DNA of 64,000 nt, taken from Hanleya hanleyi (taxonomy: Eukaryota > Mollusca > Polyplacophora > Lepidopleurida > Hanleyidae). A program made the translations under genes and the position numbers. This document shows positions 42,901 to 60,101 of this stretch, piece by piece (position 1 is the first letter of the stretch; the number at the start of each line of letters is the position of its first letter). Below the pieces are notes generated by a model. The model was given only the letters and a program-made list of their open reading frames with translations, was not told the DNA's origin and searched no databases. The stretch spans positions 96,615 to 160,614 of the forward strand of contig JAVTVY010036984.1 in assembly GCA_036873755.1 (NCBI GenBank), given 5' to 3'.

Positions 42901-43061
42901 TAACCCTATTGTCACAAAAATTGTAGTTTTTAACACAGGGGGTAATTTCAAAGTGATTAAAGGGGTAGTGAGTCCCAGCTTATCGACTGTTAACAAGTTG
43001 TTTCTTATTTGACATGTCCTAAGGTACATAAAAAACATAGTTTCCCTCTGTAGTTGGGGGG
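39957..43061. mobile_element. Foldback element, 3.1 kb, nearly all palindrome
   Basis: The left arm (about 39957-41527) and right arm (about 41528-43061) are reverse complements along nearly their whole length. Outer matches: ACTACAGAGCGAAACTATG at 39971 with the complement near 43035-43053, and AATAGGGTTAGGGTTACAAG near 40120 with its complement near 42890-42912. The centre is at about 41525-41531 around AGCCCGTAGGGC. Arms hold several divergent repeats of a unit with GGGACCATTCTTGG. No transposase ORF is present. Host sequence seems lost at the insertion, so no target duplication could be set. Confidence 0.8.
41340..41770. repeat. GAGCTC-rich core of the foldback element
   Basis: Many GAGCTC, GAGCTCTTGGAGCTC and related words lie on both sides of the palindrome centre, producing mirrored serine/glutamate-rich ORFs that are not genes. 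Confidence 0.75.
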
Positions 43062-44162: not shown

Positions 44163-44202
44163 AGTAGTAGGGAAAGAGCTTTGAAGGGCCAATGCGCTTC
44201 AC

Positions 44203-44214
44203 TGCGCATGCGCA
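44203..44214. promoter_or_regulatory. NRF1-type palindrome at left tip
   Basis: TGCGCATGCGCA is the consensus site of NRF1 in animals. A mirror copy lies at 60050-60061. Confidence 0.6.
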
Positions 44215-45612
44215 GAAATTATTTTGTGGGCGTGGCTATGTGTGTGCGCATGCGTGAGTTTATGCAAATGAGTGGGCGTGGCCTTTTATGCAAATGAGGT
44301 CATTGGGTGCATTGGGTATATTCAAGATGGCGGCTTGTTTTTTCTAGGTTAGGGGTGGTCGGCTTCAAGATGGCGGCCCATTGCACTTGTTTCGGTCCTC
44401 ATTTGCATATTTTCAAGATGGCGGCTTGTTTTTTCTAGGTTAGGGGTGGTCGGCTTCAAGATGGCGGCTTGTTTTTGTAGGTGCGTACACGTGGTTTTAT
44501 GCAAATGAGGTCATTGGGTGCATTGGGTATATTCAAGATGGCGGCTTGTTTTTTCTAGGTTAGGGGTGGTCGGCTTCAAGATGGCGGCCCATTGCACTTG
44601 TTTCGGTCCTCATTTGCATATTTTCAAGATGGCGGCTTGTTTTTTCTAGGTTAGGGGTGGTCGGATTCAAGATGGCGGCTTGTTTTTGTAGGTGCGTACA
44701 CTTGCACTTGTTTCGCGCCTCATTTGCCTATTTTCAAGATGGCGGCCTGTTTTTTCTAGGTTAGGGGTGGTCGGATTCAAGATGGCGGCCTGTTTTTGGT
44801 AGGGCGGTCAATTGTACTTGTTTTCGCTCGTCCTCATTTGCATATTTGCAAGATGGCGGCCTGTTTTTTGTAGGTTAGGGGTGGTCGGATTCAAGATGGC
44901 GGCCTGTTGTTCCCCTGAAAATATGCAAATGAGGTCATTGGGTGCATTGGGTATATTCAAGATGGCGGCTTGTTTTTTCTAGGTTAGGGGTGGTCGGCTT
45001 CAAGATGGCGGCCCATTGCACTTGTTTCGGTCCTCATTTGCATATTTTCAAGATGGCGGCTTGTTTTTTCTAGGTTAGGGGTGGTCGGATTCAAGATGGC
45101 GGCTTGTTTTTGTAGGTGCGTACACGTGCACTTGTTTCGGTCTTCATTTGCATATTTTCAAGATGGCGGCCTGTTTTTTCTAGGTTAGGGGTGGTCGGAT
45201 TCAAGATGGCGGCCTGTTTTTGTAGGTGCGGTCAATTGCACTTGTTTCGCTCCTCCTCATTTGCATATTTTCAAGATGGCGGCCTGTTTTTTCTAGGTTA
45301 GGGGTGGTCGGATTCAAGATGGCGGCCTGTTGTCCCCCTGAAAATATGCAAATGAGGTCTCTGGGTTTTTCCCCACTGTTTTCAAGATGGCGGCCTGTTT
45401 TTTGTAGGTTAGGGGTGGTTGGTTTCAAGATGGCGGCCTTGTTGTCCCTGAAAATATGCAAATGAGGTCTTTGGGGTCGTTTTCAAGAGGGTGGTTTGTG
45501 TGTGTGTGGTCGTGTTCAAGATGGCGGCTTGTTTTTTGTGTGTGAGGGGTGGTCGTTTTTCAAGATGGCGGCCTGTGATCCGCTGAAAATATGCAAATGA
45601 GGTTCAATGGGC

Positions 45613-45619
45613 TATAAAA
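45613..45619 (+). promoter_or_regulatory. TATA box for the CARD-PC4-like gene
   Basis: GGGCTATAAAAGGAG is a textbook TATA context at the inner end of the left TIR, 157 bp before the ATG at 45770. Its inverted copy serves PolB at 59084-59090. Confidence 0.8.
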
Positions 45620-45769
45620 GGAGTCCATTTTTAGGGAAAGGTCAGTATTCAATGCATTACTCTGCGTACTACTGGGACTTACTTGACTTGACCAGCCTGC
45701 CTGTCTCTCTCTGTCAGCCTGCCTGCTTGCTTCACCTCTAGCTACCCAGCCAGCCACCCAGCTATAGTC

Positions 45770-46951
45770 ATGACGTCATCATCATTATTTTTAGCGAGGC
45801 TTGACAAGCACCGTCTTCGTTTCATGGATGAGATGAAGCATGTGGATGAATTATGTGATTTCCTTATGGCGGAGGAAAACCTACTCCTGGAACAGAGTGT
45901 CGAAGAAATCATGGCGGAGAAAACCCCTTCAGCCCAAAACACAGCCCTCATCCATGTGGTACGGCAATTTACCTACTATGGATTTCTAGCCTTCGTGGAG
46001 GCGTTGAATATCACGGGAAATGCTGAACTAGCACATTTACTTGAAGCCGACGACGACGTTATACAAGATGAAGAGATCTTAGTGATGGACACTACCCGTA
46101 CAGCCAGCAAACGTACGCACACTACCCCAGAGAGTACTACATCTGCTAAACGCGCTGGCCGCCCCAAACGTCCCCGTTTAACACCGTTAGTAATACCAGT
46201 GATTGAGGCGCCAGTCGTAGTACCCCAGCAAGTGCCTGTGAAACAACAACTTCCTATGTCTGTCCAGGAGATCAACAATCTGATCGAAGCGGCTCACCAG
46301 ACAGCCCACAAGAACATTTGGGAGCTTTCACCTTATTTGACGGTGAGTGTCAAAGACGAAGAAGTGCATTTTAATTCAGCGGGGTTTAATGACAGACCTG
46401 GTAAACATATTACCCTGAACTTGGACACCTGGCAAAAACTGGAGGCCCTTGATTACGCCATTGATGCGATTATTCGTGACCAGGCGGGTAACGAAGCGAA
46501 ATTACATGTGGCTGACGACATCTATGTGAGTTGTGCTTATTTCAATGACCAGCTCCTCGTTCATATTCGAAAATGGCGAAAACGCTTAGATACGCAAGAG
46601 CTGGTGGCTTGTCCTCAAGGTGTCACATTGAAATTAACAGCGTGGCGGGAGTTGCAGAGTCTTGCCAGTACAATTAGGCAAACTCTGACCTACCAGGTGT
46701 CGACCTATATAGCTGAGAAGTACATCGAGACAGTCCTGCAGCTCATCAGACCTCACCTGAACACTCTGGTGGCCTCATACGCGGACCTCACTGAAGCACT
46801 ACAGGCTGTGACCGAGATGGAAATTATGCTGGCAGTGGTAGCGGCTTGTCCTTCCAAAATTCCACGTGAAGAGGTTGTGACGTACATCTATACCCACCAA
46901 GGACAGAAAGATGATGATGAATTCAAACAAGTCTTGTTGAAGAACTATTGA
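45770..46951 (+). CDS. CARD domain protein with two PC4-like modules (393 aa)
   Basis: Residues about 8-95 read as a six-helix CARD: LDKHRLRFMDEMKHVDELCDFL, then EEIMAEKTPSAQN and GFLAFVEALNITGNAELAHLLE, matching the family pattern (known fold for caspase/NF-kB/RIG-I-type adaptor assembly). A basic linker (KRAGRPKRPR, about 127-136) is a likely nuclear signal. Two modules then resemble the ssDNA-binding PC4/Sub1 fold: about 184-240 (YLTVSVKDEEVHFN, ending PGKHITLNLDTWQKLEAL) and about 248-310 (DIYVSCAYFNDQLLVHIRKW, ending GVTLKLTAWRELQSL). A helical C-terminal region follows. It is first gene inside the left TIR with its own TATA; poly(A) signal at 47096. Likely role (inference): DNA or transcription cofactor that can also engage host CARD signalling. 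The domain calls rest on pattern reading only. Confidence 0.8.
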   Translation: MTSSSLFLARLDKHRLRFMDEMKHVDELCDFLMAEENLLLEQSVEEIMAEKTPSAQNTALIHVVRQFTYYGFLAFVEALNITGNAELAHLLEADDDVIQDEEILVMDTTRTASKRTHTTPESTTSAKRAGRPKRPRLTPLVIPVIEAPVVVPQQVPVKQQLPMSVQEINNLIEAAHQTAHKNIWELSPYLTVSVKDEEVHFNSAGFNDRPGKHITLNLDTWQKLEALDYAIDAIIRDQAGNEAKLHVADDIYVSCAYFNDQLLVHIRKWRKRLDTQELVACPQGVTLKLTAWRELQSLASTIRQTLTYQVSTYIAEKYIETVLQLIRPHLNTLVASYADLTEALQAVTEMEIMLAVVAACPSKIPREEVVTYIYTHQGQKDDDEFKQVLLKNY

Positions 46952-47095
46952 GAACAAGGAAAACATGTATTGATCTGGAGACATTGTATTACAAAAATTC
47001 AGAGTTTTTTTTTTTTCACTGTTAATTGTATTTAAAATTCAATACTTACATATAATTGGTATTAAATTCAATTGTGAATACGTTCATTGTGTGTT

Positions 47096-47101
47096 AATAA
47101 A
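47096..47101 (+). terminator. Poly(A) signal AATAAA after the CARD-PC4-like gene
   Basis: AATAAA lies 145 bp past the stop codon, in an AT-rich 3' region. Confidence 0.65.
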
Positions 47102-47159
47102 AAAATATGTAGAAAATTGAAAAAAATGTGTTCTTTTTTCCTTTTTAATAGTCAAATAG

Positions 47160-48110
47160 CTCCAAAAACGTCTATTTCCATTCTTGCGCATGCGCAGAAT
47201 GCTGATAGTTCAACCCACACCAGTCCATCAGATGGCCCTTCATCTCACCTTCACATTGATACCTCACTCGACCCCATCGGGCCACTAGGAGCGCCCCTAA
47301 CACCAAAAAGGTTATTTTGCAGTTCGATAGCAAAACCTGGTGTGCGAGGATTATTTTTATTTTGCAGGTAGTGGGTCGAGTGAGGTGTCAAATTGAAGCT
47401 GACGTGAAATGTTTCAGATTGATACCTCACTCGACCCCATTGGACCACTAGGGGCGCCTCTAACTCCAAAAAGGTGTTTTGAAGATTACGCATGCGCAGA
47501 ATGCTGATAGTTCAACCCACACCCAGTCTATCAGATGCGCCTTCACGTTACCTTCAATTTGATACCTCATTCGACCCGATTGCACCATTAGGGACGCCTC
47601 TAACCTCAAACAGGCTATTTTTGAAGATTGATATTTTTCATATTATCTTCGCGCATGCGCAGAATTACCCTAATTCAAGCCCACACCCAGTCTATCAGAT
47701 GCTCCTTCACGTCACCTTCAATTTGATACCTCACTCGACCCGATTAGTCCACTAGGCACGCCTCTAACGCCAAAAAGGTTATTTTGCACATCGATATCAA
47801 CATCTGGTGTACGAAGTTTGTTTTTGTTTTTTTTTTTTTTTTATTTTGGCGGTAGTGGATCGAGTGAGGTATCCAATTGAAGCTGACGTGAAATGCTTCA
47901 CAATGATACCGGACTCGACCCGATTGGTCCACTAGGGGCACCTCTAAAGGTATTTTGAAGATTGATGTTGATTGATGTTGATATTGATGTTTGGCGTTAG
48001 GGCAGCCCCTAGTGGTCCAATCGGGTCGAGTGAGGTATCAATGTGAAGCATTTCACGTCAGCTTCAATTGGATACCTCACTCGATCCACTACCGCCAAAA
48101 TAAAAATTTT
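47160..48110. repeat. Cluster of degenerate direct and inverted repeats
   Basis: A unit containing GATACCTCACTCGACCCGAT, CCACTAGGGGCGCCTCTAAC and CAAAAAGGTTATTTTG occurs at least five times forward (about 47255, 47420, 47555, 47725, 47905) and once inverted (about 47990-48050). Three copies are preceded by a CGCATGCGCAGAAT palindrome (47183, 47485, 47648). ORFs in this stretch translate the repeat. It lies between convergent genes. Confidence 0.85.
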
Positions 48111-48214
48111 TGACCTTGTGTACGAAATTTTTTTTTGGAAAAAAAAATTTATTTTTTTTTGGGAAAAAAAGCATGATTGGAGCTGATGTTAAGTTGGTGT
48201 GCTTATGAAAGAAG

Positions 48215-48253
48215 TTTCTCTTTCGGAAAGATGGGTTGGCCCTGAAAAGGGCC
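48215..48253 (-). terminator. Histone-type 3' end: stem-loop plus purine element
   Basis: On the minus strand, 24 nt after the RING stop codon, GGCCCTTTTCAGGGCC (48253-48238) has a 6-bp stem and 4-nt loop, is preceded by CAAA and followed by AACCCA. This matches the replication-dependent histone mRNA stem-loop. Thirteen bases later comes GAAAGAGAAA (48224-48215), in the place of the histone downstream element that pairs with U7 snRNA. Confidence 0.75.
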
Positions 48254-48277
48254 TTTGATAGTGTGATACGACACACT

Positions 48278-48970
48278 TTAAGCGCGGAATATTCGCTTCA
48301 CGCCTCCTACATGTTTTCGACATATGGGACATCTTATCTTGAAATGCACCTCTCCGGCGTCAACGCATCGGCATAGGGCTCCTTCACACGTCAGTTGGAT
48401 CCAGCAATCCTTGCACATACACAAATGTCCACAGGGTAGAACCGCGTATAAGCTTTCTTCATTCGTGCAGATGCTACATTGTTTGATTTTTTCTTCATTA
48501 TGTCGTAGTTTCTTTTGTCTGGCAATTTCCTCTTCCAATCCCGTCATTGTGGTCTCCATTCCCAACATCGCTCCCCTCATGTCGATAATTTGTTCGTTGA
48601 GGCGTGATATTTCATCTGTGTGTCGGCATCGTGCTCTTGTTTCAGTGTCTGCAGTCGAAGTGGTGGTTGATGGAGGTCTAGTAGTTAACCATACACTGGC
48701 TAGTTCTCTATCACGGGTGTCGTCCTGGTTATCTTCTTGTTGTATGTCCTCCTCCATTCTGTTGTTGTTGTCTTGTTCACTTCCCCCGAGTTCTTCTTCT
48801 TCTGTACTTATTACCCTCGTTACATCTTCAAGAACGCGTTGAAAACTGGAGACAATAGTCAGTCTGCCATCTTCTTCCCGGGTAATTATCTCGCTATGTT
48901 CTTCTTCTGTACCCCTATTCCTTGGATCTCTAGGTTGATGGGTAAATAAGGCTCGTCGTCTTAAACTCAT
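48278..48970 (-). CDS. Acidic coiled-coil protein with C-terminal RING finger (230 aa)
   Basis: The C3HC4 RING is complete: C165-x2-C168-x11-C180-x-H182-x3-C186-x2-C189-x24-C214-x2-C217, close to the C-terminus as in IAP-type E3 ligases. Residues about 118-163 form a predicted coiled coil (ISRLNEQIIDMRGAM, then LEEEIARQKKLRH). The N-terminal 115 residues are acidic and low-complexity. The likely role is a ubiquitin E3 ligase acting on host factors (family knowledge plus inference). The start ATG is only about 33 bp downstream of the TATA box at 49003-49011, so the 5' UTR is very short. The gene has an unusual histone-like 3' end and a paralogue at 49841-50609 with identical cysteine spacing through the first six ligands. 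Confidence 0.85.
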   Translation of the reverse strand: MSLRRRALFTHQPRDPRNRGTEEEHSEIITREEDGRLTIVSSFQRVLEDVTRVISTEEEELGGSEQDNNNRMEEDIQQEDNQDDTRDRELASVWLTTRPPSTTTSTADTETRARCRHTDEISRLNEQIIDMRGAMLGMETTMTGLEEEIARQKKLRHNEEKIKQCSICTNEESLYAVLPCGHLCMCKDCWIQLTCEGALCRCVDAGEVHFKIRCPICRKHVGGVKRIFRA

Positions 48971-49002
48971 GATGTGTAGTTAATAAATGTGAACAATACA
49001 CG

Positions 49003-49011
49003 TTATTTATA
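49003..49011 (-). promoter_or_regulatory. TATA box for the first RING gene
   Basis: On the minus strand TATAAATAA precedes the ATG by about 33 bp. Confidence 0.65.
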
Positions 49012-49014
49012 GTC

Positions 49015-49320
49015 GGCTGTGTGTGTGTGTGTTTCAAGATGGCGGCTTGTTTTTTGTATGTTAGGGGTAGTCGGTTTTCAAGATGGTGGTCAAGGTCAAT
49101 TTCACTTTCCCGATCCCCAACATTCCACTTTCCCGATCCCCAGCCTTCATTTGCATATTTTCAAGATGTCGGCCTGTTTTTTGTAGGTTAGGGGTAGTCG
49201 GTTTTCAAGATGGCGGCCTGTTATTCCCTGAAAATATGCAAATGAGGTCTTTGGATTTTTGCCAAAATGATGGCTTGTTGGTAGCAGGTGTGTTTCAAAA
49301 TGGCGGCGGGTGTGACTGAG
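49015..49320. promoter_or_regulatory. Internal copy of the YY1/octamer array
   Basis: It carries AAGATGGCGGC (several, some mutated), ATTTGCATATTTTC, GTTAGGGGTAGTCGG and ATGCAAATGAGG in the order used in the TIRs. It sits directly upstream of the RING gene TATA, and 500 bp upstream of the next plus-strand gene, so it may act as a bidirectional enhancer. Confidence 0.7.
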
Positions 49321-49790
49321 TGCAAAATCGGACGGCCTGAGTGCAAGATAGATTGATCTACTGTATAGAGAGCTGTGTCACCATAGCCCAAGCATTAAAA
49401 TTACCTATTATTTTTTCGATAAATCTTTATAATTTTTAGGGCACTATTATAAGAGTAACCCATAGTTTACACGTAATTTTTTTAATCAGGAAAATCAATT
49501 TATTTTTCCATGTACCTGGGTTTTTCATACTAACTTACACGAACCTTACGGGTTTAAAATCACTAAAATTAATAAATAACCGCCTAGTGTAACGTTAGAC
49601 TGTTAAAAAAATTTAATACTATACACTCAAATTGCCGCAGTTCAACTTCCAATAAAAATATGGGTGTGTTCATAATTATTATAAAATGACAAGCTGTTTA
49701 AAATTGGAAAACAAACACAGATATTTTGTCGTAAAAAAAATATAGCCTATAGCTAGAGTGTTGTCTCGCTGACGTCCGCGTCTTTTACCC
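49321..49790. other. AT-rich spacer
   Basis: No ORF or repeat is seen. Long A/T runs only. Confidence 0.5.
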
Positions 49791-49797
49791 TATAAAT
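49791..49797 (+). promoter_or_regulatory. TATA box for the second RING gene
   Basis: CTATAAATAGC lies 44-50 bp before the ATG at 49841, the same short spacing as the other internal genes. Confidence 0.7.
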
Positions 49798-49840
49798 AGC
49801 TCTCAGAATTTTTTAATTATTCACACTTGACGACCCAGTC

Positions 49841-50479
49841 ATGGAGCCACTACTCTGTACTGAACTTATGAGTATTGATACAGCAGACTTGTTGCCAAAT
49901 GATGAGAATCAACTCCTGCCCGGTATAATTAATTTGGAAGAAGACGACCCGTGGATAGCGGAAATCATGAAGGAAATATTTCTACCTTCACCACCCCGGA
50001 ATAATCCTGCAACTATTACTACAGATCTTGCAGCAACAACGAGTCACGACCTTGCAGCCCCATCCGATGTTAATCCAGCTGAAAAAATGGACCAGATTGA
50101 CAGCCTGCTAGCAACGCTGTTGAAACAGGACAACAACACGGTACAAGAGACTACACCAGAGAAAGACTCAAGAAAAACAGAAGAAGACCAAGATTTGAAG
50201 AGGGTAGACGATGCAAGACAAAACAAAGAAAGGCTACAACAGCGGAAACAAAGAAAGGCTACAACACCCAACCGAATAACAGGGGAGAAGATCAAGAAAA
50301 TAGTGCCCAAAAAAAAAAATGCACTACCACGACGCCGCGAATTATGTCTGGGCCATTACAACTTCAACATTAGGATGCTACACCGAACGAAAAAGCGCAT
50401 TATATATTCACTGTGTGGAATGCGCGAACCCGTTTGCAAAGTACGCGGTCGGACCATGTGGACACCAGGGACTTTGTGA
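49841..50479 (+). CDS. Acidic N-terminal part of second RING gene (frame ends in another frame)
   Basis: The first about 155 residues are credible protein: an acidic start (INLEEDDPWIAEIMKEIF), a helical charged stretch (DQIDSLLATLL) and a lysine/arginine-rich segment ending at the A11 run (50309-50319). After the run this frame gives an improbable basic tail and stops at 50479, while the adjacent +1 frame carries an intact RING. The most likely reading is one gene whose two parts are offset by a single base at the homopolymer, by sequencing error, mutation or slippage. By layout (acidic head, C-terminal RING) it parallels 48278-48970. Confidence 0.65.
   Translation: MEPLLCTELMSIDTADLLPNDENQLLPGIINLEEDDPWIAEIMKEIFLPSPPRNNPATITTDLAATTSHDLAAPSDVNPAEKMDQIDSLLATLLKQDNNTVQETTPEKDSRKTEEDQDLKRVDDARQNKERLQQRKQRKATTPNRITGEKIKKIVPKKKNALPRRRELCLGHYNFNIRMLHRTKKRIIYSLCGMREPVCKVRGRTMWTPGTL
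50309..50319 (+). other. A11 homopolymer at the frame change
   Basis: Eleven consecutive A residues lie exactly where the acidic frame and the RING frame diverge by one base. Runs of this length promote polymerase slippage and are also common sequencing-error sites. Confidence 0.8.
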
Positions 50480-50609
50480 AATTTGCATTCACCGTCGAGC
50501 CGGGATATCCGCCTGTATACCGTTCCACAACACACCCGTACAGTGTCAATTACTATATGTAACCTGTCCTGTCTGTAATGATAGGATATCGGCCCAATCA
50601 ACGGAGTAA
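50319..50609 (+). CDS. C-terminal RING finger of second RING gene (96 aa)
   Basis: It has a complete C3HC4 RING: C32-x2-C35-x11-C47-x-H49-x3-C53-x2-C56-x26-C83-x2-C86, ending ten residues before the stop. Spacing equals that of the 48278-48970 protein except for two residues in the last loop, so the two are paralogues. The ATG at the end of the A11 run is probably internal rather than a true start. Predicted ubiquitin ligase activity is from the family. A histone-like stem-loop follows 28 nt after the stop. Confidence 0.75.
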   Translation: MHYHDAANYVWAITTSTLGCYTERKSALYIHCVECANPFAKYAVGPCGHQGLCEICIHRRAGISACIPFHNTPVQCQLLYVTCPVCNDRISAQSTE

Positions 50610-50636
50610 ATGGCTATATTTACTACAGATTCCAAA

Positions 50637-50674
50637 GGTTTTTTTAAAAACCACCCATGTTTTCCGAAAGGGAA
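50637..50674 (+). terminator. Histone-type 3' end of second RING gene
   Basis: GGTTTTTTTAAAAACC (50637-50652) forms a 6-bp stem with TTTA loop, preceded by CCAAA and followed by ACCCA, fitting the histone consensus position by position. A purine run GAAAGGGAA (50666-50674) follows 13 bases later as the U7-type element. An AATAAA at 50732 could be a backup signal. Confidence 0.8.
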
Positions 50675-50726
50675 CTTCTAACAAATGCACAAAAAAATTA
50701 ACACGAGAATGACAGCCCTGTGTTCG

Positions 50727-50943
50727 TTGAAAATAAATTCCCCACGCTTATGAAAATAGATTTTTTCCCGCATACCGGGGTTTAAAAATTTTTATAAAGT
50801 CCGTTATATACCCGCGGACTGTAATATTAAATTAATGGACATAACCCCACGCTTATCAAAATAAATTTTCCTACCCCTTCATACCGGGTTTTAAAACAAT
50901 TTTTAAAGTCCCTTATCCCTGGGATTATGTAATATTAAATTAA
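50727..50943. repeat. Tandem duplication of about 110 bp
   Basis: AATAAATT, CCCCACGCTTAT, ATACCGGG-TTTAAAA, TTTTTAAAGTCC and GTAATATTAAATTAATG occur twice in the same order. It is non-coding. Confidence 0.75.
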
Positions 50944-51231
50944 TGAAGGGGGGGTAGAGAAAAAAGAAAATAAATCCTCTGTGTATATATAAAGAGATTC
51001 GTTCTGACAAGAACGGTTGGATAATAGGCCAGGGGTTGTATTTTTGGGTGAATGCAGTTTGCTAAGAAAAGAGGGAAAATGTGGGACATTCTGTGCTTTT
51101 AATTGATGTGCCCAAGTTAGAAAAAAGCATCCTCTTTCGAAAGGAATTTTTTATTTTTTTTTATTTTTTTGTCCTCACAAGGACAGTTTATTATTTTAAC
51201 GTCTTTTATTGACGGTAAGTAGCCTACGTTC
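50944..51231. other. Non-coding stretch downstream of two convergent genes
   Basis: It contains a weaker stem-loop on the minus strand (TGTCCTTGTGAGGACA, 51185-51170) and a purine-rich CGAAAGAGGA (51141-51132) after the 192-aa gene, loosely like the RING gene 3' ends, plus TTTATT (minus AATAAA) at 51187-51192. Confidence 0.4.
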
Positions 51232-51810
51232 CTAAAGTGGGTTATCGCTGCTGGAGTATCCATTGGCTTGCCGGGAGTAAAGATGTTGCATTACTGCTCT
51301 GTCATCAGTATATTCATCTTCTTCTTCTTCACTGCTCGTCGTCGTCATGATTTGTGACCCGTCTAAAAAATTCACCGGGGCGCTGATGGTTGTGTTCGCA
51401 GGTTCCGGGAAATGCGGAGTTGGTAGGTCTAGAAGAGGGAAGGGTGGGCTCGGCGATGGCGGTTGTAAGGGGTGCACCATGAGCACCGGGGGCGGTGTGG
51501 TGGGCCTGGCCTGATTCATTACGGTTGACAACAAATGAAACCATCCCGGCTCGTCTATGGTACTCCTTGCGGCATTTAATAAAGTTCGTACATTTTCGGC
51601 GGTGGTCGTCTGCTGTCTGTTCCCATCCCAGCCCCGCAGCATGGCCCGCCAGCCCGTGAACTCTCTTCGCCAGAATTCTTTGATATCACGCTTCATGCGT
51701 CGTTGTTTATCACGGGATAAATACGGAAGATCCTCTTCGTCATCTCCCTCTATCCAACGGTTCGGTCTTCTTCTGTTTCTGGATGGTCGTGGCACTCTAG
51801 TGGTCGACAT
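51232..51810 (-). CDS. Proline-rich acidic protein, unknown (192 aa)
   Basis: The N-terminus is basic (RVPRPSRNRRRPNRW). Residues about 28-90 are helical with two tryptophan-rich patches (FWRREFTGWRAMLRGW, then EPGWFHLLSTVM). Then comes a proline-rich segment (about 104-135) and an acidic serine-rich tail (SSEEEEDEYTDD). No membrane segment or catalytic motif is seen and I do not recognise a family. The frame is intact with a TATA-like GCATAAATAC at 51877-51868, about 60 bp upstream. A DNA- or capsid-binding role cannot be judged from sequence. Confidence 0.65.
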   Translation of the reverse strand: MSTTRVPRPSRNRRRPNRWIEGDDEEDLPYLSRDKQRRMKRDIKEFWRREFTGWRAMLRGWDGNRQQTTTAENVRTLLNAARSTIDEPGWFHLLSTVMNQARPTTPPPVLMVHPLQPPSPSPPFPLLDLPTPHFPEPANTTISAPVNFLDGSQIMTTTSSEEEEDEYTDDRAVMQHLYSRQANGYSSSDNPL

Positions 51811-51867
51811 CTTGATTGCTTGAATTACGTCAAAAAATTTGTGATGAAATTATTCCAGATGGGCGAG

Positions 51868-51877
51868 TATTTATGCA
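51868..51877 (-). promoter_or_regulatory. TATA-like box for the 192-aa gene
   Basis: GCATAAATAC on the minus strand, 58 bp before the ATG. Confidence 0.5.
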
Positions 51878-52188
51878 CATCGCGCGGACGTGTGCGATAG
51901 CAATCGAGATGGCGAGGTAGAAAAAATTCTATAAACTCTGGGTTGTGTTTCTTTTGAATTTATAAACGGTTCTTAGTGTACAATAACTGTCAGTCCCCCG
52001 TAGAATTTTTAGTTCTAATTCTTCTCAAATAAATCAAGGGCTCGTATTAAAAATTTCAACCGTCTAGCTCTTGTCTACGTCATGAATTTTAATTTTTAGT
52101 GGGTTTTGGAGCCGGTACGAAAATACAGAAAACCCGGCCCATTAAAAAATAATTCATTTTCTGCATTAAAAATAGCGCCAGTCTATCC

Positions 52189-52525
52189 CTGATTACTCGA
52201 TACGCGTGCCCTGAAAATTCCAGTCCGTTTCGTTCGTAAGAAGTGTAGAAAAATGAATAAAACAGAGCCTGGGTTGACGGTCAGAGAACACAAACGAAGC
52301 AATTTTTCCAAAGTCACGCGCTGTGTAAAATGACAGCTCTAGAGGTTTCGTATTAATAATACTAGCCAACGTTAAAATGATTTTCTTCGTTAAAAATATA
52401 AGAAGTCGTTCAGTTATCACTCGATACGTGTGTCCTGAAAATTCCAGATCGTTTCGTTCATGAGAACTGTAGAAAAATGAACAAAACAGGGCCTGGATTT
52501 ACGGTGCGAGAGCATATTCTAGGCC
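52189..52525. repeat. Two direct repeats of about 100 bp, 235 bp apart
   Basis: ACTCGATACG-GT, CCTGAAAATTCCAG, GTTTCGTTC and GTAGAAAAATGAA-AAAAC occur at 52197-52295 and again at 52428-52520. The rest of 51878-52930 is AT-rich with no gene that I can support. Confidence 0.75.
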
Positions 52526-52934
52526 GGCCCGCTTGAATATTGAGGTCAAAAACAGAGTTGCGTCCCTGTTCATTATTCGAGTCAACCAAACTCCTCTCCT
52601 CATGTTTTTCGGTCGTTCAAAATGCAGTTTGTCACTGCAGAGTTTTGCCCCCTTATTACGTTTGGGAGGTAAGAGTTATCCTTTTATTTGCTCCTGATTT
52701 GACTATTTTTACAGCGGCGGTAGGCCTGGTTTGGATAATGATGAGCCCTTGATATTCGAAGTTAACCATGATAATGTATTATTTTTTATCTTCGTATGAG
52801 TCCAGACTATTAATTGATGCACTCGGGGTGCGTCTAAAAAATTAATTGCCGTGTCAAATTAAATTTCCCAGGGATATTTTTTTATTTTAACCCCCAGGCC
52901 AGATAGGGTTAACAATGAAAAATATAGAATCGCT

Positions 52935-52941
52935 CTATATA
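52935..52941 (+). promoter_or_regulatory. TATA box for the PC4-like repeat protein
   Basis: CTATATA lies 38-44 bp before the ATG chosen at 52979. Confidence 0.5.
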
Positions 52942-52978
52942 CATGTGTGTGGGGTTAATATTTTTATCATTGTTCAGT

Positions 52979-53662
52979 ATGGCATCGCCGGGCAAAGAGC
53001 TCGCGTTCTTTCAAGTCACGTCTAAGGTGCTTCTTATTGTATATCAACATGAATTACACCTTATCGAAGAGCACCCGATCGAAGTGAAATTAATTTTAAG
53101 CCTGGACGGGTGGAGACAATTGACACGTGTCTTACAATCCAAAGAACCCGAAGTCGATTTTATGCCTGTCGGTGTGAATGTGTATCTACGGCGGAGTAGA
53201 GAAGTTTCATTTTTTCCCCGGTTAGAGGAGTGTGGCGGTCACGGGATTGTGCTTTGGCCAGCATTATGGGCGGCGCTGAAAACTGTCATTACAGACGTGG
53301 ACGATGTACTCTATCCGCACACTCAATCGATCATGACTCGTACCCTCACCTCGGGGTGTACCCTAATAATATATTCAGATCGCATCGATCTCATTGATGA
53401 TGATTCCCGTTGCTGGGGTTCACCTGAGCCCGCCCGTGTGACATTATCTTCCGAAGGCTGGACGACCTTGAAACGCGTGTTATTCGGTGATTTGAATGGC
53501 GATGGCATTTACCTGGATCACGATGTATACATTTTTCGCGGCCCTTATTTCGCCCGATTAATCTCTCTCAAACGAGGCGGCAACAAAACCAGAAAGAAAG
53601 AGATAATTATAGTCTCCTGCTTTCATTATCCTGTGATCATGTCATTGAAGATGTCCACATGA
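52979..53662 (+). CDS. Protein of repeated PC4-like modules (227 aa)
   Basis: The start is placed at the second ATG (52979), which follows the TATA box by the usual short distance; an upstream in-frame ATG at 52943 would add a hydrophobic 12 residues and falls on the TATA box. Three modules repeat a strand-rich half followed by an amphipathic helix with tryptophan: ending LILSLDGWRQLTRVL, GIVLWPALWAALKTVI and VTLSSEGWTTLKRVL, with a fourth strand half near the C-terminus (IYLDHDVYIFRG). The helix signature matches the two PC4-like modules of the 45770 gene (ITLNLDTWQKL, VTLKLTAWREL). PC4/Sub1 proteins bind single-stranded DNA, so a replication accessory role is plausible (inference). Confidence 0.65.
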   Translation: MASPGKELAFFQVTSKVLLIVYQHELHLIEEHPIEVKLILSLDGWRQLTRVLQSKEPEVDFMPVGVNVYLRRSREVSFFPRLEECGGHGIVLWPALWAALKTVITDVDDVLYPHTQSIMTRTLTSGCTLIIYSDRIDLIDDDSRCWGSPEPARVTLSSEGWTTLKRVLFGDLNGDGIYLDHDVYIFRGPYFARLISLKRGGNKTRKKEIIIVSCFHYPVIMSLKMST

Positions 53663-53994
53663 ACATCTACAATATAAGCTTAGCTGTGATACAAACCATA
53701 CAGGGATCTTCCTTGGTTCTTGTGCTGTTTTAGAAATATACAGCCATCTATTTGTCCGTGAGGTCATACTTCTTGTCAGTATGGCCGCATCGTTTTCCAC
53801 CACCCCTTTAATGTCGCGTTCAACTGTTGCCTGTAAATGGCGATACTCTGCTGGTGGGCGTTTCGCCCCCGAGGCATGCCCTCTCTACAAATCATTGTGA
53901 TTGTAGTTTGGTGACTTGTAAACGTGGTGGAGAATGAAGCGCACTGGTCAGCATCGAACACCACATGTATTTATTCTGAACGAGAATATGCATT
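53663..53994. other. Spacer containing a decayed duplicate of 54167-54315
   Basis: 53684-53830 aligns with 54167-54315 (GATACAAACCAT, GGTTCTTGTG-TGTTT-AGAAATAT, TTGTCAGTA-GCCG-CATCGTTTTC). The upstream copy has no open frame of note. Confidence 0.7.
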
Positions 53995-54003
53995 CTATAA
54001 ATA
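53995..54003 (+). promoter_or_regulatory. TATA-like box before the small ORF
   Basis: CTATAAATACA about 70 bp before 54070. Confidence 0.45.
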
Positions 54004-54069
54004 CACCCCCCCCTTGGGCCGCTATATCTATCTGGCAGTCACAAAGTTCATCATTGTCCAGCAGATGAC

Positions 54070-54564
54070 ATGATATGGCTATTATATCATCGCTCTGAAA
54101 TATTTGTATCTAATACCGCTCAAGCCAATGCTAGGGTTCGTGTGGTCATGTCGTACAAATGCGGCGTGGCTGAGATACAAACCATCACAGGGATCCCATT
54201 TGGTTCTTGTGATGTTTCAGAAATATGCAGTAATCATATTTGTCTGTGTGGTCATATCAATTATTGTCAGTACGCCGGCATCGTTTTCGACCAACCTTTT
54301 AATGTTGCGGTTAATTGGACATACCTCGGTTTAGGTCTGAAATTCTACAATTTTGGCGAGTTTATCCGAAGATGGATCCGTGAAGATATCCAAACATGTG
54401 TGGTCCAAACCGTCACCTATCACTCTCAAAATTCTCCCAAAATATTCGCGGGTGCAGACAATATGGCAAGCCGTTTTGGTATTTATTCCTTTATTTTTGA
54501 TATCAAAAATTCTTTTTTTGATATCAAAAATAAATGTGCGCCGTTTTGGTATTTAATCGGATAA
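54070..54564 (+). CDS. Small ORF of doubtful status (164 aa)
   Basis: The frame has a cysteine-rich middle (SCDVSEICSNHICLCGHINYC) and an aromatic segment (FDQPFNVAVNWTYLGLGLKFYNF). It runs into the palindromic TTGATATCAA repeats at its 3' end, which would encode a repetitive tail (FIFDIKNSFFDIKNK). Part of the DNA is duplicated upstream without an open frame, arguing that this may not be coding. Support is a TATA-like box and its placement in a gene-sized gap. I do not recognise it. Confidence 0.35.
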   Translation: MIWLLYHRSEIFVSNTAQANARVRVVMSYKCGVAEIQTITGIPFGSCDVSEICSNHICLCGHINYCQYAGIVFDQPFNVAVNWTYLGLGLKFYNFGEFIRRWIREDIQTCVVQTVTYHSQNSPKIFAGADNMASRFGIYSFIFDIKNSFFDIKNKCAPFWYLIG

Positions 54565-54642
54565 TTGTTGATATCAAAAATATTATTTTTGATATCAACA
54601 ATTCTATTTTTGATATCAAAAATTCTTTTTTTGATATCAAAA
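54494..54642. repeat. Cluster of TTTTTGATATCAAAAA palindromes
   Basis: TTGATATCAA occurs six times in about 150 bp, each flanked by T and A runs that extend the palindrome (near 54495, 54518, 54570, 54590, 54612, 54634). A duplicated GCGCCGTTTTGGTATTTA lies among them. It is located between the last plus-strand ORF and the convergent poly(A) signals. Confidence 0.9.
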
Positions 54643-54773
54643 TCGGGATGTCCTCGTCTATGACTGGACGGCCTCTCGTTTTAATGTGCATGCTCCATTT
54701 CTCTGGTTAACTTAATGTACTGTGCGCGCATCTTGTTTTATTATTGTTATGACGTTATATTGTTCTGACGTTG

Positions 54774-54779
54774 AATAAA
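54774..54779 (+). terminator. Poly(A) signal, plus strand
   Basis: AATAAA near 54774, facing the PolB signal 40 bp away. It closes the plus-strand transcription units. Confidence 0.6.
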
Positions 54780-54820
54780 ATTGATGAAAAAAACACAATA
54801 ATGGGTTTTGACTTTCTCTT

Positions 54821-54826
54821 TTTATT
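54821..54826 (-). terminator. Poly(A) signal for PolB, minus strand
   Basis: TTTATT on the plus strand is AATAAA on the minus strand. It lies beyond the tRNA, so the tRNA would be inside the PolB 3' UTR. Confidence 0.55.
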
Positions 54827-54925
54827 TAAGTCAACAAGCAAGGATTAGACTATACAAATAGAATACAGGGTACAAATAGTAGAGGTATGTACACATAGAA
54901 TAGTAGTAGTATATACAAAAAAGTT

Positions 54926-55010
54926 TGTCAGAAGTAGGATTCGAACCTACGCAGGGTATCACCCCACCAGTACTTAGGACTGGCGCCTTAGACCACTCGG
55001 CCATTCTGAC
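54926..55010 (-). tRNA. tRNA-Leu (anticodon UAA)
   Basis: The cloverleaf is complete: acceptor stem GTCAGAA/TTCTGAC with A73, D arm GCC...GGC, anticodon stem CCAGT/ACTGG, long variable arm with GGG/CCC stem (class II, as in Leu), T arm GTAGG-TTCGAAT-CCTAC. Internal promoters are intact: A box TGGCCGAGTGGTCTAAGGC, B box GGTTCGAATCC, and a T6 Pol III terminator follows at 54922-54917. The anticodon loop is CCTAAGT, giving UAA and C at position 33 instead of the near-universal U. It lies 46 bp beyond the PolB stop on the same strand. Confidence 0.9.
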
Positions 55011-55056
55011 TTTTACAGTTTTATAACTCGTGTATCCACAGTTAATGTTCCACATT

Positions 55057-56004
55057 TTACAAGTCCAAGTAGGTAGTGCTCACACCGTCGGCCAATACTT
55101 TTCGTTTGGGATAAAAGAAAGTAAAGGCGTCTCTTTGCTGGATATAGGTCCGCATCTGGTGGTCGACGACCCGGAATCCTCGGTTAGTGCCACTCGCACT
55201 GGCCTGGCTTTGCAATACACCCAGGTAGAGCTCTTTGTCTATGTTGGGATCGCGCCGGCTCACTCCTTTGCAGCTAAACTTATCCTCTCCACCGTCAGTT
55301 CCTCCGTAACAGTAGTAGGTCTTGGAGGAGAGCGCAATCATAGCATCTCCGCTCCACTCCAGCTTGAAGAGCCCCGGTGTCCGCTTGTCGTACGTGTAGT
55401 GATCGCGTCGGGGTAGCCACTGGTCCCGCTCCGCCTCATATTGTGCCCGTAACTCGGGTTTAACGAGTGACTCCCAGTCCGGATGGGAAACGGCCATGTA
55501 GGCCGAATCTGTGTCCATCTCCATGAGTTGCCAGTCTGAGGGATCAAAATACACACCCATAAAATCATAGATGAATTCCAGCATCCTCAGCTTGGCCACC
55601 TGGTAGACCATACATCCAATCTGGAGCGGTAGGTTATAGGTGATAGTCTTCTTGGCTGACGTCACTTCGTAGGTGTCGTCATCAATCACCTCCACGGATC
55701 GATAGAGAGGAGAATTCACTTTTTTGCGAGCTTGGGTAGTCGTACAAATGTTCACGTTGACGTGTTTATCCTGGTTGGTTACCGTTTTTCCATAATAACC
55801 ATTCCCAGTCAATTTCCAAGATTCAGCGATAATAGCCTGACTCGGGAATTCATCACCTTGACGACGAGCCTTCGTCACGAGGTCGGCGTTCTCGGCAAAA
55901 CAAGCCTCAGCCACGTACTGGATCACCTGATAGATTTGAGTAATTTCCAAACCGTGTTTCATATACCACTGCAGTAAGGGGGTGCCCAGCAAGATTTTCT
56001 GCGC
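55057..56004 (-). CDS. polB: PolB C-terminal part: palm motifs B and C, thumb
   Basis: This is in the same frame as the upstream part, separated only by the TGA at 56007-56005. The 311 residues from 55992 include motif B (KLTGNGYYGKTV, about residues 60-71) and catalytic motif C (MEMDTDSAYM, about 157-166, with DTDS), followed by conserved palm/thumb sequence (DKFSCKGVS). No methionine codon lies at its beginning, so it is not a separate gene. Expression depends on read-through, or the copy is inactivated. The rest of the sequence shows no decay. Confidence 0.85.
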   Translation of the reverse strand, partial: AQKILLGTPLLQWYMKHGLEITQIYQVIQYVAEACFAENADLVTKARRQGDEFPSQAIIAESWKLTGNGYYGKTVTNQDKHVNVNICTTTQARKKVNSPLYRSVEVIDDDTYEVTSAKKTITYNLPLQIGCMVYQVAKLRMLEFIYDFMGVYFDPSDWQLMEMDTDSAYMAVSHPDWESLVKPELRAQYEAERDQWLPRRDHYTYDKRTPGLFKLEWSGDAMIALSSKTYYCYGGTDGGEDKFSCKGVSRRDPNIDKELYLGVLQSQASASGTNRGFRVVDHQMRTYIQQRDAFTFFYPKRKVLADGVSTTYLDL

Positions 56005-58971: not shown

Positions 58972-59083
58972 GCTTTTCGTCTCATACAAGCGGATAGGCA
59001 AGCAAGGCAGGCAGGCAGGCAGGCAGGCAGAGACAGGTCAGGTAAGTCAGATTGAATACACCCTCACCCTAAAAATGGACTCC

Positions 59084-59090
59084 TTTTATA
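59084..59090 (-). promoter_or_regulatory. TATA box for PolB
   Basis: On the minus strand GGGCTATAAAAGGAG, identical to the left TIR core promoter, 113 bp before the ATG at 58971. Confidence 0.8.
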
Positions 59091-60049
59091 GCCCATTGAA
59101 CCTCATTTGCATATTTTCAGCGGATCAATCCTCACACACAAAAAACAAGCCGCCATCTTGAACACGACCACACACACACACACACAAACAAACCTCCCTC
59201 TTGAAAACGACCCCAAAGACCTCATTTGCATATTTTCAGGGACAACAAGGCCGCCATCTTGAAACCAACCACCCCTAACCTACAAAAAACAGGCCGCCAT
59301 CTTGAAAACAGTGGGGAAAAACCCAGAGACCTCATTTGCATATTTTCAGGGGAACAACAGGCCGCCATCTTGAATCCGACCACCCCTAACCTACAAAAAA
59401 CAGGCCGCCATCTTGAAAATATGCAAATGAGGACGAGCGAAAACAAGTACAATTGACCGCCCTACCAAAAACAGGCCGCCATCTTGAATCCGACCACCCC
59501 TAACCTAGAAAAAACAGGCCGCCATCTTGAAAATAGGCAAATGAAGACCGAAACAAGTGCACGTGTACGCACCTACAAAAACAAGCCGCCATCTTGAATC
59601 CGACCACCCCTAACCTAGAAAAAACAAGCCGCCATCTTGAAAATATGCAAATGAGGACCGAAACAAGTGCAATGGGCCGCCATCTTGAAGCCGACCACCC
59701 CTAACCTAGAAAAAACAAGCCGCCATCTTGAATATACCCAATGCACCCAATGACCTCATTTGCATAAAACCACGTGTACGCACCTACAAAAACAAGCCGC
59801 CATCTTGAAGCCGACCACCCCTAACCTAGAAAAAACAAGCCGCCATCTTGAAAATATGCAAATGAGGACCGAAACAAGTGCAATGGGCCGCCATCTTGAA
59901 GCCGACCACCCCTAACCTAGAAAAAACAAGCCGCCATCTTGAATATACCCAATGCACCCAATGACCTCATTTGCATAAAAGGCCACGCCCACTCATTTGC
60001 ATAAACTCACGCATGCGCACACACATAGCCACGCCCACAAAATAATTTC

Positions 60050-60061
60050 TGCGCATGCGCA
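60050..60061. promoter_or_regulatory. NRF1-type palindrome at right tip
   Basis: TGCGCATGCGCA, mirror of 44203-44214. Confidence 0.6.
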
Positions 60062-60101
60062 GTGAAGCGCATTGGCCCTTCAAAGCTCTTTCCCTACTAC
60101 T

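What the first reader, a model, noticed from the sequence alone, without database searches (positions are those of the whole stretch)
48211..48278. RING gene of a Polinton-like element ends in a canonical histone-mRNA stem-loop and U7-type element
Seen: 24 nt after the stop, minus strand, a 6-bp stem/4-nt loop GGCCCTTTTCAGGGCC in CAAA...AACCCA context, then GAAAGAGAAA 13 nt later. Known: this pair (SLBP stem-loop plus histone downstream element) directs U7-dependent, non-polyadenylated 3' ends of replication-dependent histone mRNAs. Inference: the element couples expression of this gene to S phase, which fits an element replicating with its own polymerase. I know of no description of this in Polintons.
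Basis: partly seen in the sequence, partly recalled or inferred. Interest (0 to 1): 0.9.

Follow-up and report, generated by a model that had tools for sequence, protein, structure and literature searches.

The report
Histone-style mRNA ends on Polinton genes
Two neighbouring RING-finger genes of a virus-like jumping element end in the same RNA signal that the host animal's own histone genes carry, so their messages are predicted to be cut without a poly(A) tail and to be used mainly while cells copy their DNA.

Summary
The element (44163-60101) has Maverick-type ends, a 6-bp target duplication and a PolB gene; no integrase, ATPase, protease or capsid gene was found in it. It is Polinton-derived. 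It carries two divergent RING genes, and each ends in a histone stem-loop, ACCCA and a U7-type downstream element (Rfam Histone3: 33.1 bits at 48212-48258 minus, 37.8 at 50632-50677 plus; cut-off 34).

In the unnamed 2.48-Gb host genome each gene has at least 150 scored matches. Of the copies fetched, 20 of 20 RING1 and 106 of 110 RING2 have a fully paired stem; the other four RING2 hairpins are altered. Stem pairs 3-5 differ between gene types with pairing kept. The core CGAAAGRG lies 12 nt after the loop in 20/20 RING1 and 109/110 RING2 copies, and in 17 of 20 host core-histone 3' ends.

These are very probably working copies of the host's histone signal. SLBP/U7 processing and S-phase restriction follow by inference and were not tested: there were no RNA data, and the host U7 RNA was not identified.

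The parts
44163..60101 (.). whole element: Polinton/Maverick-derived, 15.9 kb, 6-bp target duplication TAGATA, ends AGTAGTAGGG//CCCTACTACT
   Evidence: ends and duplication; inverted arms; end motif as described for Mavericks in PMC8097293 (passages)
44163..45515 (+). left terminal inverted repeat with tandem AAGATGGCGGC / ATGCAAAT units
59172..60101 (-). right terminal inverted repeat
48278..48970 (-). RING1 gene, 230 aa, intact open frame, C-terminal RING closest in PDB to IAP RINGs
48238..48253 (-). histone-type stem-loop of RING1 (GGCCCT UUUC AGGGCC), 24 nt after the stop
48232..48236 (-). ACCCA, after which cleavage is predicted
   Evidence: ACCCA precedes the cleavage site in mouse H2a (PMC7026596, passages)
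48215..48224 (-). downstream element GAAAGAGAAA with purine core AAAGAG
   Evidence: same core as mouse H2a HDE and as host histones
49004..49011 (-). TATAAATA, starting 41 nt upstream of the RING1 ATG
49841..50609 (+). RING2 gene; in this copy the frame breaks (open 49841-50479 and 50319-50609, RING in the second piece)
   Evidence: pieces searched apart
50637..50652 (+). histone-type stem-loop of RING2 (GGUUUU UUUA AAAACC), 27 nt after the stop
50653..50657 (+). ACCCA, predicted cleavage site
50666..50674 (+). downstream element GAAAGGGAA
49791..49798 (+). TATAAATA, starting 50 nt upstream of the RING2 ATG
55057..58971 (-). protein-primed-type DNA polymerase B gene, one in-frame stop in this copy
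45770..46951 (+). CARD + PC4-like gene of the same element
51232..51810 (-). 192-aa ORF of the same element, unknown function; AWTAAA motifs from 22 nt after its stop, no stem-loop match

Best explanation
Both RING-finger genes of this Polinton-derived element end in a six-pair stem-loop, ACCCA and a CGAAAGRG element 12 nt past the loop, the same signal at the same spacing as most of the host's own histone genes examined, and it likely makes the host's SLBP and U7 snRNP cut these RNAs after ACCCA into messages without a poly(A) tail that are stable mainly in S phase. Shown: the signal itself; its presence in over 100 copies and in several divergent RING lineages of one genome; paired stem changes between gene types; likeness to the host histone signal; TATA motifs 41 and 50 nt upstream of the ATGs. 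Inferred: SLBP binding, U7 pairing, cleavage, lack of poly(A) and S-phase limitation, all from the known histone pathway. Also inferred: that the RING proteins are E3 ligases needed while the element's own polymerase copies its DNA in replicating cells, and that the 3' end was captured from a host histone gene and then kept by selection.
For: Two matches in 64 kb, each 24-27 nt after a RING gene on its own strand, 0.01 expected. Host copies: RING1 20 of 20 fetched fully paired; RING2 106 of 110 fetched fully paired, 104 with the identical 16-mer; on a motif-and-pairing score 108 of 110 reach 11-13 while 2200 shuffles reach at most 10. Of 68 fetched among 74 listed host Histone3 matches, 37 end RING genes. 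Stem pairs vary on both sides: RING1 pair 4 is C-G in 20 and U-A in 9 of 29; RING2 pairs 3-5 are U-A in 109-111 and C-G in 7-9 of 120 rows. CGAAAGRG starts 12 nt after the loop in 109 of 110 RING2, 20 of 20 RING1, 34 of 37 further RING copies and 17 of 20 host core-histone ends; 0.13% of the window's 40-nt stretches hold it at all. Between the window's two RING genes (RING domains 26% identical) the best DNA match is ACCCA plus downstream element, ahead of any coding stretch.
Against: No RNA or protein data. RING1's Rfam score is 33.1, under the curated 34, and the RING2 segment folds no better than shuffles (z = 0.77). Poly(A) signals lie 125 and 123 nt after the two stops. Within the RING2 subfamily the stem hardly varies and the flanks are also well conserved (0.81-0.96, against 0.97 for stem-loop and downstream element), so conservation inside that subfamily is weak proof by itself. 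L182 and L183 have a C-A mismatch at pair 4, and 4 of 110 RING2 copies have an altered hairpin. The host U7 RNA was not found. The one Polinton contig from elsewhere that could be read (L005, partial) has no such signal.
Confidence: 0.82

Rival explanations
1. A captured histone 3' end that is only carried along: the RING genes once recombined with a histone gene, and today the messages are polyadenylated at the AWTAAA sites about 125 nt after the stops.
For: AWTAAA lies 125 and 123 nt after the stops. The 3' element is very like host histone ends. Flanks in the RING2 subfamily are also conserved.
Against: The RING2 stem differs at three pairs between subfamilies and still pairs; RING1 differs at pair 4 on both sides. 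The core stays 12 nt after the loop across copies 72-100% identical and across divergent RING lineages. ACCCA plus downstream element is the best conserved DNA between the two RING genes.
Confidence: 0.1
2. Both modes are used: histone-type processing in S phase, with the downstream poly(A) site as a fallback outside S phase or when the histone machinery is limiting. This is a variant of the main reading, so the odds overlap.
For: Stem-loop and poly(A) signals are both present at both genes. Overlap of histone and polyadenylation signals in human histone pre-mRNA is the subject of PMC9756948 (seen only in a search listing).
Against: AATAAA-like words are common by chance in A/T-rich flanks; no test was possible.
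Confidence: 0.4
3. The hairpin acts as something other than an SLBP/U7 signal, for example as a DNA or RNA element of element replication or as a transcription pause site.
For: The element carries a protein-primed-type polymerase gene, and inverted repeats matter in such systems in general (recalled).
Against: It lies just after stop codons in sense orientation and resembles the host histone signal in stem, loop, downstream element and spacing.
Confidence: 0.03
4. Chance hairpin.
For: The 21-base pattern finds 4 stretches in the viral contig collection, none with an Rfam Histone3 match at E 0.01, so chance matches exist in large collections.
Against: Two matches in one element, over 100 copies, matching downstream elements.
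Confidence: 0.005

Closest known systems
3' ends of replication-dependent histone genes (Rfam RF00032; SLBP, U7 snRNP, FLASH, CPSF73)
   Same: Six-pair stem, four-base loop, A-rich 5' side, ACCCA, purine-rich downstream element with AAAGRG core; same distance as in 17 of 20 core-histone ends of this host.
   Different: The genes are not histones but RING-finger genes of a mobile element; RING2 uses an all-U/A inner stem seen in none of the 20 core-histone stretches examined.
Polinton/Maverick elements
   Same: Protein-primed-type PolB (nearest named relatives include amphioxus, sea cucumbers, a starfish, a sea anemone and a coral), long inverted ends, (AGT)2//(ACT)2 termini, 6-bp target duplication (PMC8097293 passages).
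   Different: No integrase, ATPase, protease or capsid gene found with the proteins of one other Polinton as probes; two histone-ended RING genes and a CARD-PC4 gene instead. Polintons without MCP, PRO and ATPase are described (PMC4028283 passages).
RING E3 ligases of DNA viruses and IAP proteins
   Same: C-terminal RING with all eight metal ligands; nearest PDB sequences are BIRC3, XIAP, BIRC2.
   Different: No BIR domain reported by Pfam at E 0.1; N-terminal part without known family; no relative in the protein collection at E 1e-3.

Membership tests
Histone 3' stem-loop (RF00032) | covariance-model score at or above the curated 34 bits | tested here: inconclusive
   RING2 37.8 met; RING1 33.1 just under; of the 37 RING genes fetched from the host Histone3 list 35 are above the cut-off, L182 and L183 at 30.4
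Histone 3' stem-loop (RF00032) | stem kept by compensatory change | tested here: met
   RING1 pair 4 C-G/U-A; RING2 pairs 3-5 U-A/C-G; exceptions L182, L183 (C-A) and 4 altered RING2 copies
SLBP/U7 histone 3'-end signal | purine-rich downstream element at fixed distance, matching the host's histone genes | tested here: met
   CGAAAGRG 12 nt after the loop: 109/110, 20/20, 34/37 element copies, 17/20 host core-histone ends
SLBP/U7 histone 3'-end signal | complementarity to the host U7 snRNA 5' end | tested here: inconclusive
   best RF00066 match 27.1 bits, cut-off 34; U7-like pattern only with a mismatch, 35 places against 16 for the reversed pattern
SLBP/U7 histone 3'-end signal | non-polyadenylated RNA ending after ACCCA, S-phase limited | not testable with these tools
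   no RNA data
Polinton/Maverick | protein-primed-type family B polymerase | tested here: met
   41% identity over 1368 aligned positions with the PolB of L005
Polinton/Maverick | inverted ends with AGT repeats and 6-bp target duplication | tested here: met
Polinton/Maverick | integrase, ATPase, protease, major and minor capsid genes | tested here: not met
   tblastn with ten ORFs of L005 finds PolB only inside the element (the one integrase hit, at 11.5-11.8 kb, lies in the Gypsy-type ORF). 0 of 96 contigs listed for the major capsid protein are among the contigs listed for RING1, RING2 or CARD-PC4 (lists capped). Far-diverged genes could be missed. Filed therefore as Polinton-derived, not as a complete Polinton
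RING E3 ligase | RING metal ligands | tested here: met
   PF13920 32.7 bits (cut-off 27) in RING1; 23.4 in the RING2 piece, under the cut-off but with all eight ligands by eye (and sequence)
RING E3 ligase | ubiquitin ligase activity | not testable with these tools
   no assay

The most novel reading that the evidence does not exclude
A whole lineage of Polinton-derived elements has taken over the host's histone expression programme for a divergent pair of E3-ligase genes: octamer- and TATA-bearing promoter at one end, SLBP/U7 3' end at the other, so that the pair is switched on only in cells that are copying DNA, when the element's own polymerase can be used; the 3' signal was captured from a host histone gene and has since evolved by paired changes.
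Probability: 0.55. Interest if true: 0.93.

Novelty: new variant of a known kind. Interest (0 to 1): 0.87.

Why it matters
Histone-type 3' ends are thought of as the mark of replication-dependent histone mRNAs. Here a mobile DNA element appears to use the same host pathway for its own regulatory genes. If so, a DNA parasite has a ready sensor of S phase without coding for one, and poly(A)-selected RNA data would miss transcripts of such elements. With about 150 scored matches per gene in one genome, the claim can be tested in RNA libraries made without poly(A) selection. The U/A inner stem of RING2 is also a natural test of which stem bases SLBP really needs.

Tried and rejected
Chance hairpin: rejected. 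Relatives in virus collections: PolB, RING1 and a PolB alignment found none in IMG/VR. The stem-loop pattern found 4 stretches there, none with an Rfam Histone3 match; a first pattern was one base short and so meaningless. RING1 has no relative in the large protein collection at E 1e-3. A scan of bacterial and archaeal genomes gave one Polinton contig (L005, filed under a tubeworm symbiont, taken here as host DNA): ATPase-, integrase- and protease-type genes are supported by Pfam, the capsid labels are mine from length and order, and there is no Rfam match of any family at E 1 in its 11.8 kb. The contig is partial, so this says only that the signal is not universal. Host U7: not identified. 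Host species: not identified; a LINE protein search gave few named hits, among them a fish and a mussel. PolB copies in the host could not be counted because the machine did not answer. Within-family conservation of RING2 3' ends was looked at as evidence and found weak by itself, as nearby flanks are also conserved. PHROGs gave nothing useful. Two U7 papers were not held; a survey of animal viruses (PMC11071296, passages for six terms) has no occurrence of 'stem-loop'.

Full report
What was reported and whether it is there. On the minus strand the RING ORF stops at 48280-48278. After 24 nt comes GGCCCTTTTCAGGGCC (48253-48238) in CAAA...AACCCA context, and 13 nt later GAAAGAGAAA (48224-48215). 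Rfam Histone3 scores 33.1 bits there (curated cut-off 34; E = 3.8e-6 for 24 kb against all families). A second Histone3 match, 37.8 bits, lies at 50632-50677 on the plus strand. The strict pattern occurs only at these two places in 64 kb, with 0.01 expected and 0 of 100 shuffles reaching two. Relaxed searches list no other Histone3 match in the window.

The element. Inverted arms of about 0.9-1.4 kb bound a 15.9-kb unit, 44163-60101. Its ends are AGTAGTAGGG and CCCTACTACT and it is flanked by the 6-bp duplication TAGATA. This is the Maverick end motif (AGT)2//(ACT)2 with a 6-bp target duplication, as described in PMC8097293 (passages). The minus-strand gene at 58971-55057 is a PolB of this group: Pfam DNA_pol_B_2 is above its cut-off, and the nearest named relatives include amphioxus, sea cucumbers, a starfish, a sea anemone and a coral. 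In this copy it has one in-frame stop between the two listed ORFs. tblastn with ten ORFs of another Polinton contig (L005) finds only PolB inside the element. Polintons that lack the capsid, protease and ATPase genes are described (PMC4028283 passages).

The two RING genes. RING1 (48970-48278, minus) is an intact 230-aa frame with a C-terminal RING (PF13920, 32.7 bits), closest in the PDB to IAP RINGs. RING2 (49841-50609, plus) is broken into two overlapping frames in this copy; the second piece holds a RING. The RING domains are 26% identical over 62 positions. Both genes have CTATAAATA shortly before the ATG: the TATAWA motif starts 41 nt (RING1) and 50 nt (RING2) upstream. Comparing the two genes with flanks at DNA level, the best local match is the stretch from ACCCA through the downstream element (40 columns, 80% identity, E = 0.001), ahead of any coding stretch (next 0.049).

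Copies in the host genome. The window's genome is 2.48 Gb in 52,793 contigs, unnamed. RING2: 150 matches listed, a capped list, 100% to 72% identity. I fetched 110 of them: 30 loci, one of which is the window's own copy, and 80 further stretches; 40 were left out. In all 110 the best hairpin starts 25-29 nt after the stop. In 104 it is the same 16-mer, 2 have one G-U pair, and 4 (L038, L069, L091, L113) are altered by a shift or mismatch. On a score of pairing and motif letters 108 of 110 reach 11-13, against at most 10 in 2200 base shuffles of the same 150 nt. RING1: 155 matches reported, those listed 100% to 76% identical. 20 3' flanks were fetched across that range; 20 of 20 have a fully paired stem, 18 with the identical 16-mer, one with a loop change and one with a U-G pair. 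78 contigs stand in both lists (144 and 145 contigs), and on these there are 78 divergent pairs within 3 kb, with 932-1490 bp between the RING1 match and the RING2 piece. The CARD-PC4 gene (105 matches on 103 contigs) shares 50 contigs with RING1 and 52 with RING2; 38 contigs hold all three.

Divergent relatives and covariation. The host's own Histone3 list has 74 matches; only 75 of 360,901 candidates were scored, so it is a lower bound. I fetched 68 of 74. 37 follow RING genes (28 RING1-type, 9 RING2-type). 26 follow a multi-copy gene of about 107-127 aa without known family, and 3 more have the same 3' sequence without a readable frame. 1 follows histone H1 and 1 a DDE transposase fragment. 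With the window genes and the RING2 copies added, stem pair 4 of RING1 is C-G in 20 and U-A in 9 of 29. RING2 pairs 3, 4 and 5 are U-A in 109, 111 and 111 and C-G in 9, 7 and 9 of 120 rows, in which the window's own copy stands twice (as window and as L014); L182 and L183 have C-A at pair 4. On a tree of 45 RING domains the stem type changes 6 times by parsimony, including changes to the two imperfect types. The variable pairs thus change mostly on both sides, as expected of a selected RNA stem.

Likeness to the host histone signal. I fetched 20 3' ends of core-histone (PF00125) matches. 19 of 20 have the hairpin, 13 with GGCCCTTTTCAGGGCC and two (L193, L201) with one mismatched pair, and CGAAAGRG after it; L208 has neither in the stretch read. 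CGAAAGRG begins 12 nt after the loop in 17 of these 20 (11 and 13 nt in one each, absent in L208). It does so in 109 of 110 RING2 copies (absent in L090), 20 of 20 RING1 copies and 34 of 37 RING genes of the Histone3 list (11 nt in two, absent in L009). Only 0.13% of 40-nt stretches of the window contain it. Several histone ends continue in the same words as the element (for example L195 ccgaaagggaacttctaac...gcacaaa against the RING2 3' end). The purine core AAAGAG is the same that pairs with U7 in mouse, where ACCCA precedes the cleavage site (PMC7026596 passages). That the element's signal was captured from a host histone gene is my inference from this likeness.

What it most likely does. 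From the established histone pathway (named above; not tested here): SLBP binds the stem-loop, U7 snRNP pairs with the downstream element, CPSF73 cuts after ACCCA, and the message has no poly(A) tail and is translated and kept mainly in S phase. The RING1 promoter region also holds two ATGCAAAT octamers and two AAGATGGCGGC motifs; the octamer occurs 8 times outside the element too, the second motif nowhere outside it. I recall the octamer as the histone H2B promoter element and AAGATGGCGGC as a YY1-type site; neither label comes from a call. A pair of likely E3 ligases expressed only when the cell copies DNA would suit an element with its own polymerase.

Evidence against and limits. RING1 scores just under the Rfam cut-off. 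The RING2 3' segment does not fold better than shuffles (z = 0.77), while the RING1 segment does (z = -5.45). Poly(A) signals lie 125 and 123 nt after the stops, so a mixed mode is quite possible. A second hairpin over the RING1 downstream element could mask its U7 site. The RING2 subfamily is recent enough that its flanks are conserved too: mean pairwise identity 0.97 for stem-loop and downstream element, 0.81-0.96 for flanking blocks, 0.82 at third codon positions, over 98-99 distinct copies. The host U7 was not identified. None of the 96 contigs listed for the Polinton major capsid protein is among the contigs listed for the three element genes, so these elements look capsid-less, but the lists are capped and the probe is distant.

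Literature. Full-text search for 'histone stem-loop' with 'Polinton' gave 0 papers. Among the papers listed in wider searches (listings only, most of them cut at 12-30 of many) I saw no title or abstract start that describes a histone-type 3' end on genes of Polintons or other mobile elements. The library holds open-licence papers only. Verdict: the finding is real, conserved and stronger than reported. The mechanism is inferred with high probability, and the S-phase consequence is untested.

Noticed in passing
44163-45515, 59172-60101 and 49036-49246: 41 copies of AAGATGGCGGC in the window, all inside the element (39 in the terminal regions, 2 before RING1), 0.016 expected; 22 ATGCAAAT octamers in the terminal regions and 2 before RING1.
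   Followed up: partly
54926-55010, minus strand: A complete tRNA-Leu(TAA) gene between PolB and the rest of the element.
   Followed up: no
45770-46951, plus strand: A gene joining a CARD domain to a PC4-like domain, at 89-100% identity in 105 listed host matches.
   Followed up: partly
L006, L010, L011, L127, L128, L130-L132, L134, L135, L142, L144-L149, L152-L155, L160-L164, L190: A second multi-copy gene (about 107-127 aa, no Pfam family) also ends in a histone stem-loop; 15 of 26 have the CGAAAGRG core. Two copies 4.4 kb apart were read on one contig, where 7 Histone3 matches are listed in all. Not a histone by Pfam; identity unknown.
   Followed up: partly
L165: A histone-type stem-loop follows a DDE_Tnp_4 (Harbinger-type) transposase fragment; single case.
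   Followed up: no
48260-48277, minus strand: A further hairpin AGTGTG/CACACT directly after the RING1 stop; the whole RING1 3' segment folds far better than shuffles (z = -5.45).
   Followed up: no
L005: An 11.8-kb contig filed under a tubeworm symbiont genome carries Polinton PolB, ATPase-, integrase- and protease-type genes and probable capsid genes; probably animal DNA in a bacterial assembly.
   Followed up: partly
40002-43022: A large imperfect palindrome of about 3 kb just left of the element.
   Followed up: no
G000 (host genome): 96 listed matches to the probable major capsid protein of L005 (52-56% identity), 95 of them without a stop inside, on contigs other than those listed for the RING elements: two kinds of Polinton may live side by side, one perhaps supplying capsids to the other.
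   Followed up: partly
52943-53662, plus strand: ORF with a stretch that looks by eye like the PC4-like part of the CARD-PC4 gene; no Pfam match.
   Followed up: no
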